Assembly: GCF_000314995.1 (NCBI RefSeq) | Contig: NZ_BAEO01000006.1 | Span: forward strand, 62,001-126,000 | Length of the DNA: 64,000 bases | DNA from: Paraglaciecola arctica BSs20135 | Lineage (GTDB): Bacteria > Pseudomonadota > Gammaproteobacteria > Enterobacterales > Alteromonadaceae | Reading direction: 5' to 3' | Shown: one piece after another, positions 13,612-24,499 of the stretch | Layout: the number at the start of each line of letters is the position of its first letter | Numbering within the stretch: the stretch's first letter is position 1 | Notes under the pieces: generated by a model | Seen by the model: the letters and a program-made list of their open reading frames with translations, nothing else | What the model was told of the DNA's origin: nothing | Databases searched by the model: none | Translations under genes and position numbers: made by a program

Positions 13612-14376
13612 CTAATTCAATGCTTGTTTTACTCTTTTTATATTGGATTTTTTTGCTAAAGTTTGAGAACAGTTATCTATTGCCACTATGCTGTTCAACG
13701 ATTCAAAGTCCAAAATAGACAAATAACGTAGCTTTACTGCAATAATATTTCTTTGTTGAAAGCTAGCGAATACACGACTTACTGTCTCTATAGCCATACC
13801 TAAATAATTGGCAATATCAGTACGTGTCATGCTTAACATAAATTCACTACCTGATAAGTTTCTATCGGAAAAACCGAATGATAAGTCCAGTAAAAACTGC
13901 GCGACTTTTTGTTCACTTGAACATGTACTTAAACACATCATCATTGCACTGTCGCTAGCTAAGGTATGACTCATGGATTGCAATAAACCATTGCGAAAAT
14001 CAGGACTGGTTTGTATCAGACTATTTATCTGTGATTCTTTGATAAAACACACACTACTAGTTTCTAAAAAACGTACAGTTTGGGTATGCACATGTGCATC
14101 AAATCCATCTATTCCTAACATGTCACCAGGATAATAAAATTTAGTGATATGTTCTTCACCATCTCGGGAGGTAATAAATGATTTAGCCGAACCCGAGCGC
14201 AATAGATAAATACCTTCAAAATAATTCCCAACTGAAAATAGGTTATCTCTGCGATGAAAAACTCTATGGGAATCTCGCTGCTGGGATTGGTTTATAGAGC
14301 TACTACTGCCCATATAAGTGTCCAATAGCGTAGTTGCGTTGTAATAGTCATTTTGTGGTTGATATGAAGTCTTCAT
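13612..14376 (-). CDS. CRP/FNR-family regulator, FixK-like (no Fe-S cysteines)
   Basis: A 254-residue transcription factor. A cyclic-nucleotide-binding-type beta-roll (about residues 35-150, with YLLRSGSAKSF and FYYPGDMLGIDGF) is followed by a dimerisation helix and a winged HTH (about 190-225: TRTDIANYLGMAIETVSRVF). The recognition helix has the E-x2-SR pattern of FNR/FixK proteins that read TTGAT. The N-terminal Cys cluster that holds the 4Fe-4S in FNR is absent, so oxygen is not sensed directly, as in FixK. ATG 14376 has GAGG about 10 bases upstream; a TTG at 14472 is in frame but has a poor context. It is divergent from the FixL/FixJ-like pair, which may control it. Confidence 0.85.
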   Translation of the reverse strand: MKTSYQPQNDYYNATTLLDTYMGSSSSINQSQQRDSHRVFHRRDNLFSVGNYFEGIYLLRSGSAKSFITSRDGEEHITKFYYPGDMLGIDGFDAHVHTQTVRFLETSSVCFIKESQINSLIQTSPDFRNGLLQSMSHTLASDSAMMMCLSTCSSEQKVAQFLLDLSFGFSDRNLSGSEFMLSMTRTDIANYLGMAIETVSRVFASFQQRNIIAVKLRYLSILDFESLNSIVAIDNCSQTLAKKSNIKRVKQALN

Positions 14377-14559
14377 TTTAGTTACGCCTCTGTAGGTATT
14401 ACTTGTGCCATAAAGTTTATCAACTGACATAACGCGTAATTGTCGAGCTGTCACTTTCACTTCCTCTTTCAAGTTAAATCATATACCGTAAACAAAAGGT
14501 TTCACTATCCGGAATGTCGCGTAAATCACTTCGGAAACTACGTATATTGGATGCTGTTA

Positions 14560-15753
14560 ATGCCTGAATCTGACAAGTCATTCTCGAAGCAAAGATCATT
14601 GGATAACACTGTGGGCCAAGCCCCCATCGAAGATGCTAACGCCAGGTTGACTGCCTTACTTGACGCCACAGTAGACGCCTTAATTATTATTGATGGAAAA
14701 GGCAATATTGAGGTTTTTAACGCAGCGGCGCAGAGGATGTTTTTATATTCAAGTCAAGAAGTGTTAGGTAAAAATATTAAACTTCTTATGCCTTCTCCTT
14801 TTAGTGAAGAGCATGACAAATATCTCTCCACTTATTTGGCTTCTGGTGAAACCAAAATTATTGGTAAAGGCAGAAAAGTTAGAGGTAAAAAATCCAATGG
14901 TGAAGAATTCCCCATATTCCTGAGTGTTGGTGAGGTAAAAGAATCTAGCCACACCCAGTTTGTCGGTATTATTAGAGATATTTCTGAACAAGAACAGGAC
15001 AGAATTGAGGTTCAAGAAAGTAGAGACCGTTTGTCGCACGCCTCTAGGTTAAGTTCTATGGGTGAACTCGCAGCTGGTATTGCTCATGAAATGAACCAAC
15101 CCCTTGCTGCCATAACCAGTTATGCCCAAGCGTCAAAACGACTTTTGCAATCAGCGACAGTAGACAATAAAGAAAAGGTGGCGATTGCACTGGATAAAAT
15201 TTGTGATCAAGCCATTCGGGCCAGCGATGTAATCGATAGGCTCAGATCATTTGTTAAAAAACGTGTAGCCCAACGTGAATCAGTTGACCTTAACAAGCTG
15301 ATACTTGAAACTGTGAAGTTGGCTAAAGTAGATACCCGTATTCTTGATCATCAAGTCATACTGAAATTAAGCCAAGATATAAAACCTAAACTACTAGCTG
15401 ACCCAGTGCAAATACAGCAAGTGTTATTAAACCTGATCCGCAACGGCATCGATGCCATGGAAGATTTAAAAGGCGCACCATTACATATTAGAAGCCAGTG
15501 GTTATCAGACGAGATGATTGAGGTGTCGGTTATTGATTGTGGCTATGGCCTAGATGAAGACTCCATTAGCGGTATATTTAGCCCGTTTTTCACCACCAAA
15601 GCGGCCGGAATGGGAATGGGCTTATCAGTAAGTCAAACTATCATTCATTCTCATGGAGGAACAATATACTTTGGCCCGAGCCAACCATCTGGATGTATAT
15701 TTTCATTTAGTTTACCCGCTACTGTTATCAACCAAGAAAAGATTGAGAAATAA
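14560..15753 (+). CDS. FixL-like PAS sensor histidine kinase
   Basis: A 397-residue soluble kinase without membrane helices. The PAS domain (about 30-140) has EEHDKYLSTYLASGETKIIGKGR; His85 and Arg105 are spaced exactly as haem-ligand His200 and oxygen-contact Arg220 of Bradyrhizobium FixL. The HisKA motif GIAHEMNQPLAAITSYAQ gives phospho-acceptor His176. The ATP-binding domain has LLNLIRNGIDAM and MGMGLSVSQTIIHSHGG. It is thus a likely haem-based oxygen (or NO) sensor, though non-haem PAS kinases share parts of this signature. ATG 14560 is chosen (GGA 8 bases upstream). The FixJ-like gene starts 2 bases after the stop. Confidence 0.88.
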   Translation: MPESDKSFSKQRSLDNTVGQAPIEDANARLTALLDATVDALIIIDGKGNIEVFNAAAQRMFLYSSQEVLGKNIKLLMPSPFSEEHDKYLSTYLASGETKIIGKGRKVRGKKSNGEEFPIFLSVGEVKESSHTQFVGIIRDISEQEQDRIEVQESRDRLSHASRLSSMGELAAGIAHEMNQPLAAITSYAQASKRLLQSATVDNKEKVAIALDKICDQAIRASDVIDRLRSFVKKRVAQRESVDLNKLILETVKLAKVDTRILDHQVILKLSQDIKPKLLADPVQIQQVLLNLIRNGIDAMEDLKGAPLHIRSQWLSDEMIEVSVIDCGYGLDEDSISGIFSPFFTTKAAGMGMGLSVSQTIIHSHGGTIYFGPSQPSGCIFSFSLPATVINQEKIEK

Positions 15754-15754
15754 T

Positions 15755-16405
15755 ATGAAAAATAATCAGACTGAAAGTTTGTCAACTTCCCCCATGGTAC
15801 ATGTAGTAGATGATGATGAAGCCGTTTTGGATGCTGTGGGCATGTTATTAGACAGTATTGGACAGCGAAACACTTGCTACAAAGATGCCCAGGTGTTTTT
15901 AGAAGCATACAACTCCGCAGATTTCGATAACCACAATGGTTGTATAATGTTGGATATGCGGATGCCCGTAATTAGTGGCATCGAATGCCAACATAGACTC
16001 GAACAAATGGGCTGTAGTATGCCAATCATTTTTGTAACCGGTCATGGCGATGTGCCCACAGCAGTTGAGGCAATGAAACAAGGTGCTATAGAATTTATTC
16101 AAAAACCCTTCAGAGAACAGCAACTGATAGATGCTATTCAAAAAGCATTGCAAATAAATCTTAAGTCTCAAAAACGAATCGAAAAAGTACAGGAAACTCA
16201 GGCTAAATTAAAATTATTAACCAACCGAGAGGTCCAAATTCTTGAGGCGGTGGTATCAGGTAAAGCCAATAAAGTTATTGCTATTGAGCTTCATCTGAGC
16301 CAAAGAACAGTAGAAATACATAGAGCACATGTGATGGAAAAAATGGGTGTTAAGTCCCTTGCCGAACTAGTAAAAATAGTCATTGATGCCTCCCCTACTG
16401 AATAA
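15755..16405 (+). CDS. FixJ-like response regulator (receiver + LuxR HTH)
   Basis: A 216-residue response regulator. The receiver (about 14-130) has acidic DDDE, phospho-acceptor Asp67 in MLDMRMP, Thr in VTGHGD and Lys in FIQKPF. A LuxR/GerE-type HTH follows (LTNREVQILEAVVSGKANKVIA, then LSQRTVEIHRAHVMEKMGVKS). It is the partner of the FixL-like kinase just upstream, and the two are surely co-transcribed. In FixLJ systems the phosphorylated regulator activates fixK; a FixK-like gene lies divergently 184 bases from the kinase start. The exact target sequence could not be identified. Confidence 0.9.
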   Translation: MKNNQTESLSTSPMVHVVDDDEAVLDAVGMLLDSIGQRNTCYKDAQVFLEAYNSADFDNHNGCIMLDMRMPVISGIECQHRLEQMGCSMPIIFVTGHGDVPTAVEAMKQGAIEFIQKPFREQQLIDAIQKALQINLKSQKRIEKVQETQAKLKLLTNREVQILEAVVSGKANKVIAIELHLSQRTVEIHRAHVMEKMGVKSLAELVKIVIDASPTE

Positions 16406-16504
16406 TTTACGTATAATTCCTTATTGCTCTATTCCTTCCTTTACGTGGATAATTAACTCTAAATCATACAATAAGTATTAAATTCAGTGTTATCTAGGCC
16501 TTTT

Positions 16505-16906
16505 ATGGAATCCAAGATTAATGTCGCTAATAAACAGTTGGTAAAACCAATTGTGTATCTAGTTGACGGTGACCATAAGTTACAAGTTTCACTATCTAAA
16601 CTATTAAATCAAAATAACGTGGCAGTAGAGATGTTTAGTTCTGCAGAAGACCTTTTGCAGACAAAATTAAGAACTAGAGCAGCCTGTCTAATAGTTGAAG
16701 TAAACCTACCCAATATGGACGGCATTCAATTACTCGAACATATTAATAATCTCGGCGTTAGATTGCCCACAATAGTTTTGTCATCCGACGGTAACGTTTC
16801 TGTAGCCGTTCGCGCAATGAAAGCAAAAGCCATTGATTTTATTGAAAAACCTTTTGTAGAAAACACACTCGTTAAAAAAGTACTGGATATAATAGAGTTG
16901 AATTAA
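16505..16906 (+). CDS. Stand-alone receiver with Glu in place of phospho-Asp
   Basis: A 133-residue single receiver domain without an output domain, similar to FixJ receivers. The Lys (FIEKPF) and a Ser in the Thr position (VLSSDGN) are kept, and the acidic pocket DGD is present. The phospho-acceptor Asp is Glu65: CLIVEVNLPNMDG aligned with CIMLDMRMPVISG of the neighbouring FixJ-like protein. The replacement suggests a phosphorylation-independent, perhaps permanently active-like, receiver. It could bind the FixL-like kinase or FixJ-like protein as a decoy. ATG 16505 follows AGG by 6-7 bases; GTG 16487 is in frame. It follows the fixJ-like gene by about 100 bases on the same strand. Confidence 0.8.
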   Translation: MESKINVANKQLVKPIVYLVDGDHKLQVSLSKLLNQNNVAVEMFSSAEDLLQTKLRTRAACLIVEVNLPNMDGIQLLEHINNLGVRLPTIVLSSDGNVSVAVRAMKAKAIDFIEKPFVENTLVKKVLDIIELN

Positions 16907-16981: not shown

Positions 16982-16995
16982 TTGACCTGTATCAA
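16982..16995 (+). promoter_or_regulatory. FNR/FixK-like box upstream of the DUF4136 lipoprotein
   Basis: TTGACCTGTATCAA fits TTGAT-N4-ATCAA with one substitution (TTGAC half-site). It is centred about 92 bases before GTG 17081 and may control the lipoprotein and the downstream ldhA-like gene. Confidence 0.6.
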
Positions 16996-22216: not shown

Positions 22217-24499
22217 TTATATTGCTTGGTTATTATGGTTTTTTCCTGGTACAAAGGCTTTATAAACAAAGCATACAAAAGCCACCACGCCCACACTAAA
22301 TACTATGTCTCCAGGCACTCTAGCCCAAACCAGTGCTTCCATAATAGGGCTGTGTATAAACTCAGCCGAACGGGCAAAGAAATAACCTTGATCTATACTG
22401 ACGTAAGTTTGAATGACGCCTTGTGGTAGCAGCGATAAAAAGGTCATCATCGCCAGACCAATGTTAAGAGACCAAAATGATATTTTAAGTAACTTTTGAT
22501 TCCAAAAGTCGATATTAGTGAGGCCTCGCAGACAATATAATGTCAGTCCCAATCCAAGCATGCCATACACCCCAAACAGCGCCGCATGTCCATGATTGGC
22601 TGTAGTGTTAAGTCCTTGCATATAATAAAGCGCGATAGGTGGATTGATCATAAAGCCAAATATACCCGCACCGACTAAATTCCAAAAAAGAACCGCCGCA
22701 AAAAACATAAATGGCCAGTGATAATTACGCTGCCATTGTTCCATATGCTCTACTTTGTGGCGTGTATAAGCCTCAAAACCTACCACTAATAGCGGCACAA
22801 CTTCTAGGGCAGAAAACATGGCGCCAACCGCAATAACTGATGTTGGTGTACCACTAAAATACAAGTGGTGGAAAGTACCCAGCACACCACCGAACAAGAA
22901 TATAATAGTCGCAAACAATACCATTACAGTAGCGGTAGATTTACGTAAAATGCCCATGCGTACAAACAGTAAGGAAATAATCGCAGTCGCGAATACCTCA
23001 AAAATACCTTCAACCCAAAGATGAACCACCCACCAACGCCAATAGTTCATTATGGCTATATGGGTATGTTGGCCCCACATTAGGCCTGCGGCATACAGTA
23101 AACCAATCGCAATTGCCGATACCAGCACTAAATAAATCAGCGACTTACCGCCTTTTTGCATTAATACAGGCCAGAGTCCGCGCATCACTAAAGCTACCCA
23201 AAGGAATAATCCAATGGTCAGATAAATCTGCCAGAATCGACCCAGATCAACATATTCATAACCCTGATGTCCAAACCAGAAGTTCATGGTCAAATCACTA
23301 AAGAAACGATGCACCGCAGCCCATTGCCCCAAAAACGACCCTATAACAATGATCAACAAACTAAAAAACAGAAAGTTAACCCCAAAGCGTTGAAATTTTG
23401 GTTCACGGCCTCCCATCAAAGGTGCAACATATAATCCTGTTGCCAGCCATGCGGTAGCAATCCAAAGCACCGCCAGTTGCGTGTGCCATGTTCGTGTCAC
23501 TGTGTAAGGAAGATACTCAGCAAAAGGTAGACCGTAGAGCCCCTGCCCTTCAACCGCATAATGGGCGGTAATAATGCCAAGCAATACTTGCGCGAGAAAC
23601 ATAGCACTGACCACCCAAAAATACTTTGCCGTTGCGCGCATCGAAGGTGTGACAATTGTACTATCCACTAAATCCGCTTTGGCCATGCCGGTTTCGGGTA
23701 AAGCGTCGTTTTGCCAAACATCAAATTGTTTTGCGTAATAGGCAATCAGAGCACCAGCGCCGGCTAGCAGTAACAGCACTGATGCAATGCTCCACATTAA
23801 CAGTTCAGTTGTAGGCTTGTTGCCCACTAGCGGTTCATGGGGCCAGTTGCTCGTGTAGGTAATATCCAAGTTTGGGCGATTTGTAGTGGCCCCCCAAGCA
23901 GTCCAGAAATAGAAAGATGAAAGCTGCTTTGCTTCTACTTCAGTAAGTAGGCCATGCACAGGGAAAGCATAATCACGGCGCAGTGCCAAGGACTCAGGAT
24001 CGCTGCCTACGTAGAGTCTTACAAAATGGTTTCCGACCTTTTTAATGGCCTCGGCTCTAAGGTCAGTGACCATAATATTACCCGTTGCCGGGTCATAGCT
24101 GTTGGTGCGCATCTCTTTTTGCAGCGCGGCTTTTCGTAATGCAGTATTCTGCTCTTCAGACAGCCCTGTAATAGGCGTTTTAAGCATTAACCCCAACAGG
24201 GTTTCAGCTTCTCGATGCAGCCATTCAGCGCTCCAATCTGGCGCAAGATAACTACCATGCCCCCAAATTGAACCTTGCTCCATGCCACCAATTGACTGCC
24301 ACACATTTTGGCCGGTTTCGATATCATTTAAGGTATATAGTACTTCTCCAGAAGACGAAGTAACCGTTTGTGGCATAGGTGGTGCTTTTTGATAAATTTC
24401 TGCTCCGAGAAATAGCAAGATGCCGAACATGGCAATCATTCCTACGATCAGAATTATCCATAATCGTTTTATGCTAAAAGTTTGTTGATAGGTTTGCAT
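22217..24499 (-). CDS. norB: Quinol-dependent nitric oxide reductase (qNOR)
   Basis: A 760-residue single-subunit NO reductase. An N-terminal extension with a membrane helix (about 12-35) and a periplasmic domain (TGQNVWQSIGGMEQGSIWGHGSYLAPDW) replaces the NorC subunit, as in qNOR/NorZ. The haem-copper-oxidase-like core has about 12 helices, with conserved His in TWHTQLAVLW, HRFFSDL, GQHTHIAIMNYW, VHLWVEG, GTFHHLYF and ANHGHAA, and the Glu-rich NOR pattern (WVEGIFEVFATA). It reduces 2 NO to N2O using quinol. AAGGA precedes ATG 24499. A perfect FNR/FixK box stands upstream. No nitrite reductase gene is in the window, so it may serve NO detoxification. Confidence 0.93.
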   Translation of the reverse strand: MQTYQQTFSIKRLWIILIVGMIAMFGILLFLGAEIYQKAPPMPQTVTSSSGEVLYTLNDIETGQNVWQSIGGMEQGSIWGHGSYLAPDWSAEWLHREAETLLGLMLKTPITGLSEEQNTALRKAALQKEMRTNSYDPATGNIMVTDLRAEAIKKVGNHFVRLYVGSDPESLALRRDYAFPVHGLLTEVEAKQLSSFYFWTAWGATTNRPNLDITYTSNWPHEPLVGNKPTTELLMWSIASVLLLLAGAGALIAYYAKQFDVWQNDALPETGMAKADLVDSTIVTPSMRATAKYFWVVSAMFLAQVLLGIITAHYAVEGQGLYGLPFAEYLPYTVTRTWHTQLAVLWIATAWLATGLYVAPLMGGREPKFQRFGVNFLFFSLLIIVIGSFLGQWAAVHRFFSDLTMNFWFGHQGYEYVDLGRFWQIYLTIGLFLWVALVMRGLWPVLMQKGGKSLIYLVLVSAIAIGLLYAAGLMWGQHTHIAIMNYWRWWVVHLWVEGIFEVFATAIISLLFVRMGILRKSTATVMVLFATIIFLFGGVLGTFHHLYFSGTPTSVIAVGAMFSALEVVPLLVVGFEAYTRHKVEHMEQWQRNYHWPFMFFAAVLFWNLVGAGIFGFMINPPIALYYMQGLNTTANHGHAALFGVYGMLGLGLTLYCLRGLTNIDFWNQKLLKISFWSLNIGLAMMTFLSLLPQGVIQTYVSIDQGYFFARSAEFIHSPIMEALVWARVPGDIVFSVGVVAFVCFVYKAFVPGKNHNNQAI

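What the first reader, a model, noticed from the sequence alone, without database searches (positions are those of the whole stretch)
13612..16906. FixL-FixJ-FixK-like oxygen control module plus a pseudo-receiver
A PAS kinase keeps His85 and Arg105 at the FixL haem spacing of 20 residues. A FixJ-like regulator follows, and a divergent FNR-type protein has no Fe-S cysteines, as in FixK. FixLJ-K is best known in alphaproteobacteria; a compact copy in an Alteromonadales-like genome with an extra receiver is unusual.
Basis: partly seen in the sequence, partly recalled or inferred. Interest (0 to 1): 0.8.

Follow-up and report, generated by a model that had tools for sequence, protein, structure and literature searches.

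The report
FixL-FixJ oxygen switch with a pseudo-receiver
A marine bacterium carries a FixL-FixJ-type gene set, a kind known for oxygen sensing in nitrogen-fixing root bacteria, whose extra receiver protein has lost its phosphate-accepting residue and may act as a built-in brake on the sensor.

Summary
The kinase keeps His85 and Arg105 in a FixL-type haem PAS (best solved matches are FixL, E 3e-30). A FixJ-type regulator follows. The divergent FNR-type protein lacks the three N-terminal cysteines. A single receiver follows fixJ.

The interpretation needs correcting. (1) A receiver behind fixJ is common: 23 of 50 other fixLJ pairs have one, at the position of fixT (FixL inhibitor) of Sinorhizobium. 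All 23 keep the phospho-Asp. (2) Here the Asp is Glu in 13 of 13 orthologues (one truncated), found in 13 of 22 same-genus genomes (Paraglaciecola) and 0 of 373 others of the family. One orthologue is PDB 3kto. (3) The kinase is a separate branch, not a rhizobial import. (4) The 'FixK' is an FNR paralogue that lost its cluster ligands.

Best model: O2-controlled FixL phosphorylates FixJ, which activates the FNR-like gene; the pseudo-receiver, under its own conserved promoter element, inhibits FixL without being phosphorylated, like FixT. Haem, O2 and inhibition are inferred. The promoter evidence is suggestive: a FixJ-like site in the divergent region passes a shuffle test in 3 of 6 genomes; the element before the pseudo-receiver is conserved but unassigned. 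New variant of a known kind.

The parts
13612..14376 (-). FixK-like CRP/FNR regulator, an FNR paralogue without the three N-terminal Fe-S cysteines (ORF open to TTG 14472; ATG 14376 favoured by relatives)
   Evidence: Pfam cNMP_binding + HTH_Crp_2; no Cys motif, IETVSR recognition helix; groups with Alteromonadaceae FNR, 100/98; the genome's intact FNR lies elsewhere
14377..14559 (.). Divergent promoter region fixK-like/fixL
   Evidence: conserved blocks in clade A relatives; the densest 16 columns (TTAAATCATATACCGT, not the FixJ-like site) hold 12 invariant, 0 of 5000 permutations
14532..14544 (-). FixJ-like site TACGTAGTTTCCG, facing the fixK-like gene
   Evidence: 9/10 to the published SELEX consensus GTAGTTTCCC, letter-shuffle p 0.003 in this region; only exact TAMGTARTTTCC in the 64 kb and only TANGTAGTTTCCG in the 5.96 Mb genome; the bare number of such sites is not above chance or control
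14560..15753 (+). FixL-type PAS histidine kinase, 397 aa, PAS from residue 29
   Evidence: PAS, HisKA, HATPase_c; FixL tops the PDB matches of whole (as kinase chimeras) and of PAS; tree
14812..14814 (+). His85 codon, position of the FixL haem His (BjFixL His200, SmFixL His194; numbers recalled)
14872..14874 (+). Arg105 codon, position of the FixL distal Arg (BjFixL Arg220; number recalled)
15755..16405 (+). FixJ-type response regulator (receiver + LuxR HTH), 216 aa
   Evidence: Pfam; NCBIfam FixJ 223 bits, cut-off 255; acidic pair and phospho-Asp present in the alignment
16408..16427 (+). Conserved element TACGTATAATTCCTTATTGC in the fixJ/pseudo-receiver gap, followed here by GATAAT 20 nt on; probable own promoter of the pseudo-receiver gene
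   Evidence: 6 of 6 clade A gaps aligned; 0 of 5000 permutations; the pattern, shaped on these six, has one zero-mismatch copy in each of the six genomes and none in three clade B genomes
16505..16906 (+). Pseudo-receiver (single receiver domain, 133 aa from ATG; 139 from GTG 16487), at the fixT position
   Evidence: Pfam Response_reg 75 bits; PDB 3kto best; 13 orthologues
16697..16699 (+). Codon of the Glu that replaces the phospho-accepting Asp
   Evidence: 13 of 13 orthologues; Asp in 23 of 23 other fixT-position receivers of the sample
16982..16995 (+). FNR/FixK-type box, 1 mismatch, before the DUF4136 gene; not necessarily part of the module

Best explanation
The genes form an oxygen switch of FixL-FixJ type. 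At low O2 the haem-PAS kinase autophosphorylates and passes phosphate to FixJ, which activates the divergent FNR-type gene through a FixJ-like site between the two genes. The Cys-less FNR paralogue then acts as an O2-blind relay on FNR-type boxes, beside the genome's true Fe-S-type FNR. The third gene makes a receiver that cannot take phosphate in the usual way (Glu for Asp) and probably has its own promoter. It most likely binds the kinase where FixJ would and holds autophosphorylation down: a phosphorylation-independent negative feedback as FixT gives in Sinorhizobium and Caulobacter. Shown: gene content, residues, conservation, gene order, conserved promoter elements. Inferred: haem, O2 as signal, FixJ as activator, and inhibition by the pseudo-receiver.
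For: The PAS matches solved FixL, E 3e-30. H85, Y88, Y92 and R105 are kept in all module kinases compared and in L008; 0 of 34 rows of the more distant kinases (L011-L083) that span the PAS keep both H85 and R105. In S. meliloti a single receiver (fixT by position and recall) sits directly behind fixJ, followed by fixK, as receivers do in 23 of 50 other fixLJ pairs, 17 of them with an FNR-family gene close by. FixT inhibits FixL autophosphorylation, and phosphorylation of S. meliloti FixT was not seen (PMC7078487, sections 4 and 13); Osp does the same to CckA (PMC9430884, passages). Glu 13/13, purifying selection. FixJ-like site facing the fixK-like gene. Dense conserved element before the pseudo-receiver in both clades; in clade B it is TTGATCYAGCGCAA, like an FNR/FixK box. 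Within the genus the Cys-less FNR paralogue was found only in clade A; six of six clade B genomes gave only a Cys-bearing FNR.
Against: No experiment. The SmFixL Arg200 position is Thr91 here. NCBIfam cut-offs for FixL and FixJ are not reached. The pseudo-receiver is not an orthologue of S. meliloti FixT in the tree, which has few columns and long branches. The clade A element before the pseudo-receiver does not match published FixJ consensuses better than shuffles; the divergent-region site is not significant in L114, L116 and L117; against the longer S. meliloti site none of the six divergent regions is clearly better than shuffles (p 0.06-0.33); the clade B box is not significant in any single sequence (p 0.12-0.19). 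Counts of the FixJ-like pattern in window and genomes do not exceed shuffles or the reversed control. Three sister loci (L008, L188, L226) have fixLJ without the pseudo-receiver; 9 of 22 genus genomes lack it. In the 13th genome, G012, it is truncated (from residue 38) with no fixL or fixJ on the 8 kb fetched.
Confidence: 0.55

Rival explanations
1. The pseudo-receiver is a positive partner: Glu mimics phospho-Asp, the domain sits in the active form and dimerises with the FixJ receiver, giving FixJ a basal, phosphate-independent activity.
For: Glu in place of Asp is a partial phosphomimetic in many response regulators (PMC12632262, passages); the Lys of the switch is kept in 12 of 13; heterodimers are among that review's models.
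Against: The switch Thr is Ser in clade A and Ala in clade B, which a locked phospho-like state would not favour. The fixT-position receivers that were tested inhibit the kinase.
Confidence: 0.2
2. The pseudo-receiver acts on a target outside the module, such as an adaptor protein or another kinase of the genome, with no effect on FixL.
For: Single receivers work by protein-protein contacts (PMC7078487, section 4); the genome has a second FixLJ-like pair and a triple FixL-type PAS protein.
Against: It stands directly behind fixJ in 12 of 13 loci (and for the window); the 13th is a truncated copy without fixLJ.
Confidence: 0.15
3. The kinase PAS holds no haem and senses another cue, the His and Arg being relics.
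For: In the genome's second FixL-like kinase the His is Tyr, so loss does occur; the residue at the SmFixL Arg200 position differs.
Against: H85, R105 and the hydrophobic positions 100, 101, 121 and 123 are kept in all module kinases compared, with Val, Ile and Ile at 100, 121 and 123 in L008; SmFixL R200 variants still show FixL haem spectra, though they autoxidise (PMC10765370, passages).
Confidence: 0.1
4. The pseudo-receiver is a decaying copy of a receiver without function.
For: Part of the Mg site is lost in most and the site is phosphate-dead; one genome has a truncated copy.
Against: dN/dS 0.09-0.28 over 15 clade A pairs, invariant Glu, own conserved element upstream.
Confidence: 0.03

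Closest known systems
Rhizobial fixL-fixJ-fixT-fixK cluster (Sinorhizobium meliloti pSymA)
   Same: FixL-type PAS kinase, FixJ, single receiver directly behind fixJ, CRP/FNR regulator without the N-terminal Cys motif close by (fixT and fixK named by position and recall)
   Different: The fixK-like gene is divergent, not downstream; kinase on another branch; receiver not orthologous to FixT in the tree and with Glu at the phospho-site; FNR-like protein of separate origin
FixT of Caulobacter crescentus (PMC7078487)
   Same: Single receiver domain acting on FixL as feedback inhibitor
   Different: No 4-Cys motif here; phospho-site is Glu
Osp of Rhodobacter sphaeroides (PMC9430884, passages)
   Same: Receiver-like protein, not phosphorylated, that inhibits a histidine kinase in a feedback loop
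   Different: Osp keeps the Asp and lacks the acidic pair and the Lys; target is CckA
CmrRST of Clostridioides difficile (PMC12632262, passages)
   Same: Kinase, regulator and a pseudo-receiver protein in one operon
   Different: CmrT is called an atypical response regulator there; this one is a bare receiver
PDB 3kto, response regulator receiver protein
   Same: Orthologue of the pseudo-receiver: identical at 125 of 126 aligned residues to that of relative G006, which is 45% identical to the window's
   Different: The entry's name gives no function or partner; organism recalled as Pseudoalteromonas (Paraglaciecola) atlantica, not shown by a call
FixKf of Rhizobiaceae (PMC4999443, passages)
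   Same: FNR-type paralogue thought to have lost its Fe-S ligands independently of FixK and to do the same job
   Different: Alphaproteobacterial; controlled by hFixL-FxkR there

Membership tests
FixL | PAS domain homologous to FixL haem PAS with His and Arg 20 residues apart | tested here: met
FixL | Haem bound and O2 switches kinase off | not testable with these tools
   needs spectra and kinase assay
FixL | Falls within the group that holds S. meliloti FixL | tested here: not met
   10 module kinases entered form a clade with three other Alteromonadaceae kinases (100/99); S. meliloti FixL is in a separate group of 54 rows (99/83)
FixL | NCBIfam FixL equivalog NF041777 cut-off (850 bits) | tested here: not met
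   best family of all, but 373 bits
FixJ | Receiver with acidic pair and phospho-Asp plus LuxR HTH, next to fixL | tested here: met
FixJ | NCBIfam FixJ cut-off (255 bits) | tested here: not met
   223 bits, best family
FixK | CRP/FNR protein without N-terminal cluster cysteines, with E-x-x-S-R recognition helix | tested here: met
FixK | Groups with S. meliloti FixK | tested here: not met
   groups with Alteromonadaceae FNR; NCBIfam FNR 168 bits against FixK 90
FixK | Gene under FixJ | tested here: inconclusive
   FixJ-like site in the divergent region, p 0.003 to 0.51 by genome
FixT | Single receiver gene directly behind fixJ | tested here: met
FixT | Not phosphorylated | tested here: inconclusive
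   phospho-Asp is Glu in 13 of 13, which argues for it; biochemistry not done
FixT | Orthologous to S. meliloti FixT | tested here: not met
   separate place in a weakly resolved tree with long branches
FixT | Inhibits FixL autophosphorylation | not testable with these tools
   needs kinase assay
FixT | Gene induced by the FixLJ system | tested here: inconclusive
   conserved elements in both clades; no significant FixJ match in the gap; FNR-like box in clade B
Pseudo-receiver | Receiver domain lacking a residue needed for phosphotransfer | tested here: met
   Pfam Response_reg, Glu for Asp; solved orthologue 3kto, E 4e-24

The most novel reading that the evidence does not exclude
A FixT-type kinase brake that evolved apart from rhizobial FixT and was made permanently phosphate-dead by a fixed Asp-to-Glu change. 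It would be a receiver that imitates phospho-FixJ, the product of the kinase, so that FixL is inhibited by a mimic of its own output. Its promoter would be wired to the FixLJ branch in one clade and to an FNR-type box in the other. The crystal structure 3kto would then already show a kinase inhibitor.
Probability: 0.3. Interest if true: 0.7.

Novelty: new variant of a known kind. Interest (0 to 1): 0.5.

Why it matters
How bacterial pseudo-receivers are switched is called a mystery in a 2025 review (PMC12632262, abstract and passages). Here a pseudo-receiver has a likely partner in the same gene cluster, a solved orthologue, and a well-studied analogue (FixT), so the question comes down to a kinase assay. 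The comparison also suggests that a receiver behind fixJ is a frequent part of FixLJ loci (23 of 50 sampled).

Tried and rejected
A recent import of the cluster from rhizobia: not supported by the kinase tree. The pseudo-receiver as a recent duplicate of its own fixJ: not supported, it forms a clade (99/94) away from the module's FixJ (97/99). The FNR-like protein as true FixK: not supported. Fe-S binding like Caulobacter FixT: no 4-Cys motif in the 13 aligned sequences. Rhizobial FixJ consensus in the fixJ/pseudo-receiver gap: best matches no better than shuffles, so the element there is called conserved, not FixJ-bound. An FNR box between the fixK-like gene and fixL: none above chance. Paper searches for FixL with FixJ and Alteromonas, FixL with FixJ and pseudo-receiver, and Paraglaciecola with FixL found 0 papers each; the library holds open-licence papers only. 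FNR-box targets were looked up only near the window, one C6 stretch and ccoN, so the regulon was not mapped. No structure was predicted.
Full report
What is there. Four genes make the module: an FNR-type gene (minus strand, ATG 14376), a PAS kinase (14560-15753), a FixJ-type regulator (15755-16405) and a single receiver (16505-16906).

The kinase. Whole protein and PAS find FixL at the top of the solved relatives (the whole-protein tops are chimeras with the FixL kinase part), and NCBIfam ranks FixL first at 373 bits, under its cut-off of 850. His85 and Arg105 fall on the FixL haem ligand and distal Arg. Tyr88, Tyr92, Ile100, Ile101, Leu121 and Val123 are also kept in all module kinases compared; the related L008 has Val, Ile and Ile at 100, 121 and 123 and Ser at 104. 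The roles of these residues in FixL are recalled, apart from SmFixL R200 and I209. R200 corresponds to Thr91. Two named alphaproteobacterial kinases in the same alignment (L185, L186) have His there, and SmFixL R200 variants keep FixL spectra but autoxidise (PMC10765370, passages). Of the more distant kinases (L011-L083), 34 rows span the PAS and none keeps both His and Arg; the other loci were matched only in the kinase part. I read the PAS as very likely haem-bound, not shown.

Descent. In a tree of 84 kinases the 10 module kinases entered (L117, in several frames, and L123 were not) form a clade with three other Alteromonadaceae kinases, L008, L188 and L226 (100/99), near a second Alteromonadaceae kinase type. 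The outgroup rows have long branches that meet, and the root is for drawing only. In 398 genomes of the phylum, 57 matches in 48 genomes reached 372 bits or more; three of these genomes are of this family, 45 of other classes. Other same-class or same-order matches stayed at or under 298.3 bits; only five candidates per genome were scored. FixLJ of this type is thus rare in Gammaproteobacteria as far as sampled; L009, a Pseudomonadales MAG, is one more case.

The third receiver. Its best PDB match is 3kto, whose sequence is that of the orthologue in G006 (125 of 126 aligned residues). A profile of 13 orthologues, searched in 395 genomes of the family, found 13 genomes at 169.6 bits or more, all of the genus (13 of 22), the next match being a full-length regulator at 95.7 bits; 0 of 373 other genomes had one (11 candidates per genome scored; the 13 hits are the sequences the profile was built from). 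The phospho-Asp column is Glu in 13 of 13. The acidic pair is D-x-D in clade A (D-D-D in L116; not covered in L118) and D-H-H/Q in clade B; the switch Thr is Ser or Ala; the Lys is kept in 12 of 13. dN/dS has a median of 0.17 over 15 clade A pairs and 0.13 over the 4 of 15 clade B pairs with finite dS; fixJ, fixL and the FNR-type gene are lower, 0.08-0.11.

In 12 of the 13 genomes the gene stands directly behind fixL-fixJ. In G012, a fragmentary genome (690 contigs, 84% complete), it begins at residue 38 right after a stretch that looks like the fixK-like/fixL promoter, with neither fixL nor fixJ on the 8 kb fetched: a deletion or a misassembly.

The position. In S. meliloti the order is fixL, fixJ, single receiver, CRP/FNR gene. 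The 1021 record has no annotation there; other S. meliloti records annotate fixL and fixJ at the match; fixT and fixK are named by position and recall. I fetched 54 further FixL-type loci, holding 55 of the 57 matches; the other two are the window and the own second pair. In 50 of 54 a fixJ-type gene adjoins on the same strand; in 23 of these 50 a single receiver follows directly; all 23 keep Asp. One of the 23 (L204) is an over-long ORF reading. An FNR-family gene lies near in 26 of 54, and in 17 of the 23 (counted from its list). Outside this set, L009 has the same four-gene layout with Ala at the phospho-site and an FNR with its cysteines; Azospirillum (L185) and Qipengyuania (L186) have Asp; R. 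tropici (L184) and L008 have fixLJ without such a receiver. So the fixT position is a frequent part of FixLJ loci, and dead phospho-sites may have arisen there more than once.

In a receiver tree the pseudo-receivers are one clade (99/94), apart from the module's FixJ (97/99) and from the S. meliloti FixT group. Few columns and long branches leave the deeper order open. Both clades of the genus have the gene, whereas L188, L226 and L008, whose kinases fall among theirs, do not, which points to an old gene with losses.

The FNR-type protein. It is an FNR paralogue: with the own genome's Cys-bearing FNR (CQHCAMSGMC) and others it forms a clade (100/98; with L009 99/94) away from the S. meliloti FixK. 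The Cys-less form stands beside fixL in the window and in L114-L117, and also in L008 and L226 of other lineages. Six of six clade B genomes gave one match each, all with the Cys motif; so did G021 of clade A; G012 is fragmentary. The ORF filter returned no row for L243, L259, L256 and L261; L243 is the Cys-less gene of G001 already seen. This parallels FixKf of Rhizobiaceae (PMC4999443, passages).

Control regions. The divergent region holds TACGTAGTTTCCG (14532-14544, minus strand, towards the FNR-type gene). Against the published SELEX consensus GTAGTTTCCC (PMC4999443, passages) it scores 9/10 in the window (p 0.003), L115 (0.020) and L119 (0.010), 8/10 in L114 and L116 (0.13, 0.16) and 7/10 in L117 (0.51); the other two published FixJ sequences gave nothing clear (300 letter shuffles each). 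The pattern TANGTAGTTTCCG, shaped on these, occurs once in G000 and once in G017, both times here, twice in G021, once here, and once elsewhere in G007; the reversed control pattern is commoner, so the number says nothing, only the place does. The same holds for the window counts. The gap before the pseudo-receiver holds a dense conserved stretch in both clades: TASGTAYAANNNCTTATTGC in 6 of 6 of clade A, TTGATCYAGCGCAA in 6 of 6 of clade B; 0 of 5000 column permutations reach either. The clade A element is not a FixJ site by published consensus; the clade B one resembles an FNR/FixK box but is not significant alone. FNR boxes are enriched in the window (19 against 4.9 expected with up to one mismatch); perfect ones stand before the glycerol dehydrogenase, NO reductase and SDF symporter genes.

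Model and scores. See Best explanation. The precedent is close: FixT and Osp are receiver-like, were not found phosphorylated, are transcribed under the system they brake, and inhibit the kinase. What I could not show is inhibition itself, haem, and which transcription factor drives the gene. I score interest 0.5: a new variant of a known kind that makes the question of how pseudo-receivers work testable with an existing structure.

Noticed in passing
L148:3349-6358 (G000:C67:13.3-16.4 kb, outside the window): Second FixL-FixJ-like pair of the same genome; its kinase has Tyr at the haem His position while relatives L126, L128 and L129 keep His: a possible loss of haem.
   Followed up: partly
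L147:2622-4487 (G000:C32): 621-aa protein with three FixL-type PAS domains in a row, each with the His and Arg of the haem signature, followed by a single receiver-like gene.
   Followed up: no
window 22217-24499 (-): Nitric oxide reductase subunit B with cytochrome c-like domain and a perfect FNR/FixK-type box 130 bp upstream.
   Followed up: partly
window 20559, 24629, 30705 (perfect), 16982 (1 mismatch): FNR-type boxes are about four times commoner in the window than in shuffles, 19 against 4.9 with up to one mismatch, as if this stretch were an anaerobic gene island.
   Followed up: partly
L117:4022-5216 (G001): fixL of this relative matches in three overlapping stretches in different frames, and the FixJ-like site upstream is not kept there: decay of the sensor or sequencing error.
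   Followed up: no
L118:1107-1406 (G012): Truncated pseudo-receiver next to a promoter-like stretch, fixL and fixJ missing: deletion or misassembly.
   Followed up: partly
L009:4935-8262: Pseudomonadales MAG with fnr (cysteines intact) divergent from fixL-fixJ and a single receiver with Ala at the phospho-site.
   Followed up: partly
L179-L183: Other genomes of the family have single receivers of 126-141 aa near PAS kinases and FixJ-like regulators.
   Followed up: no
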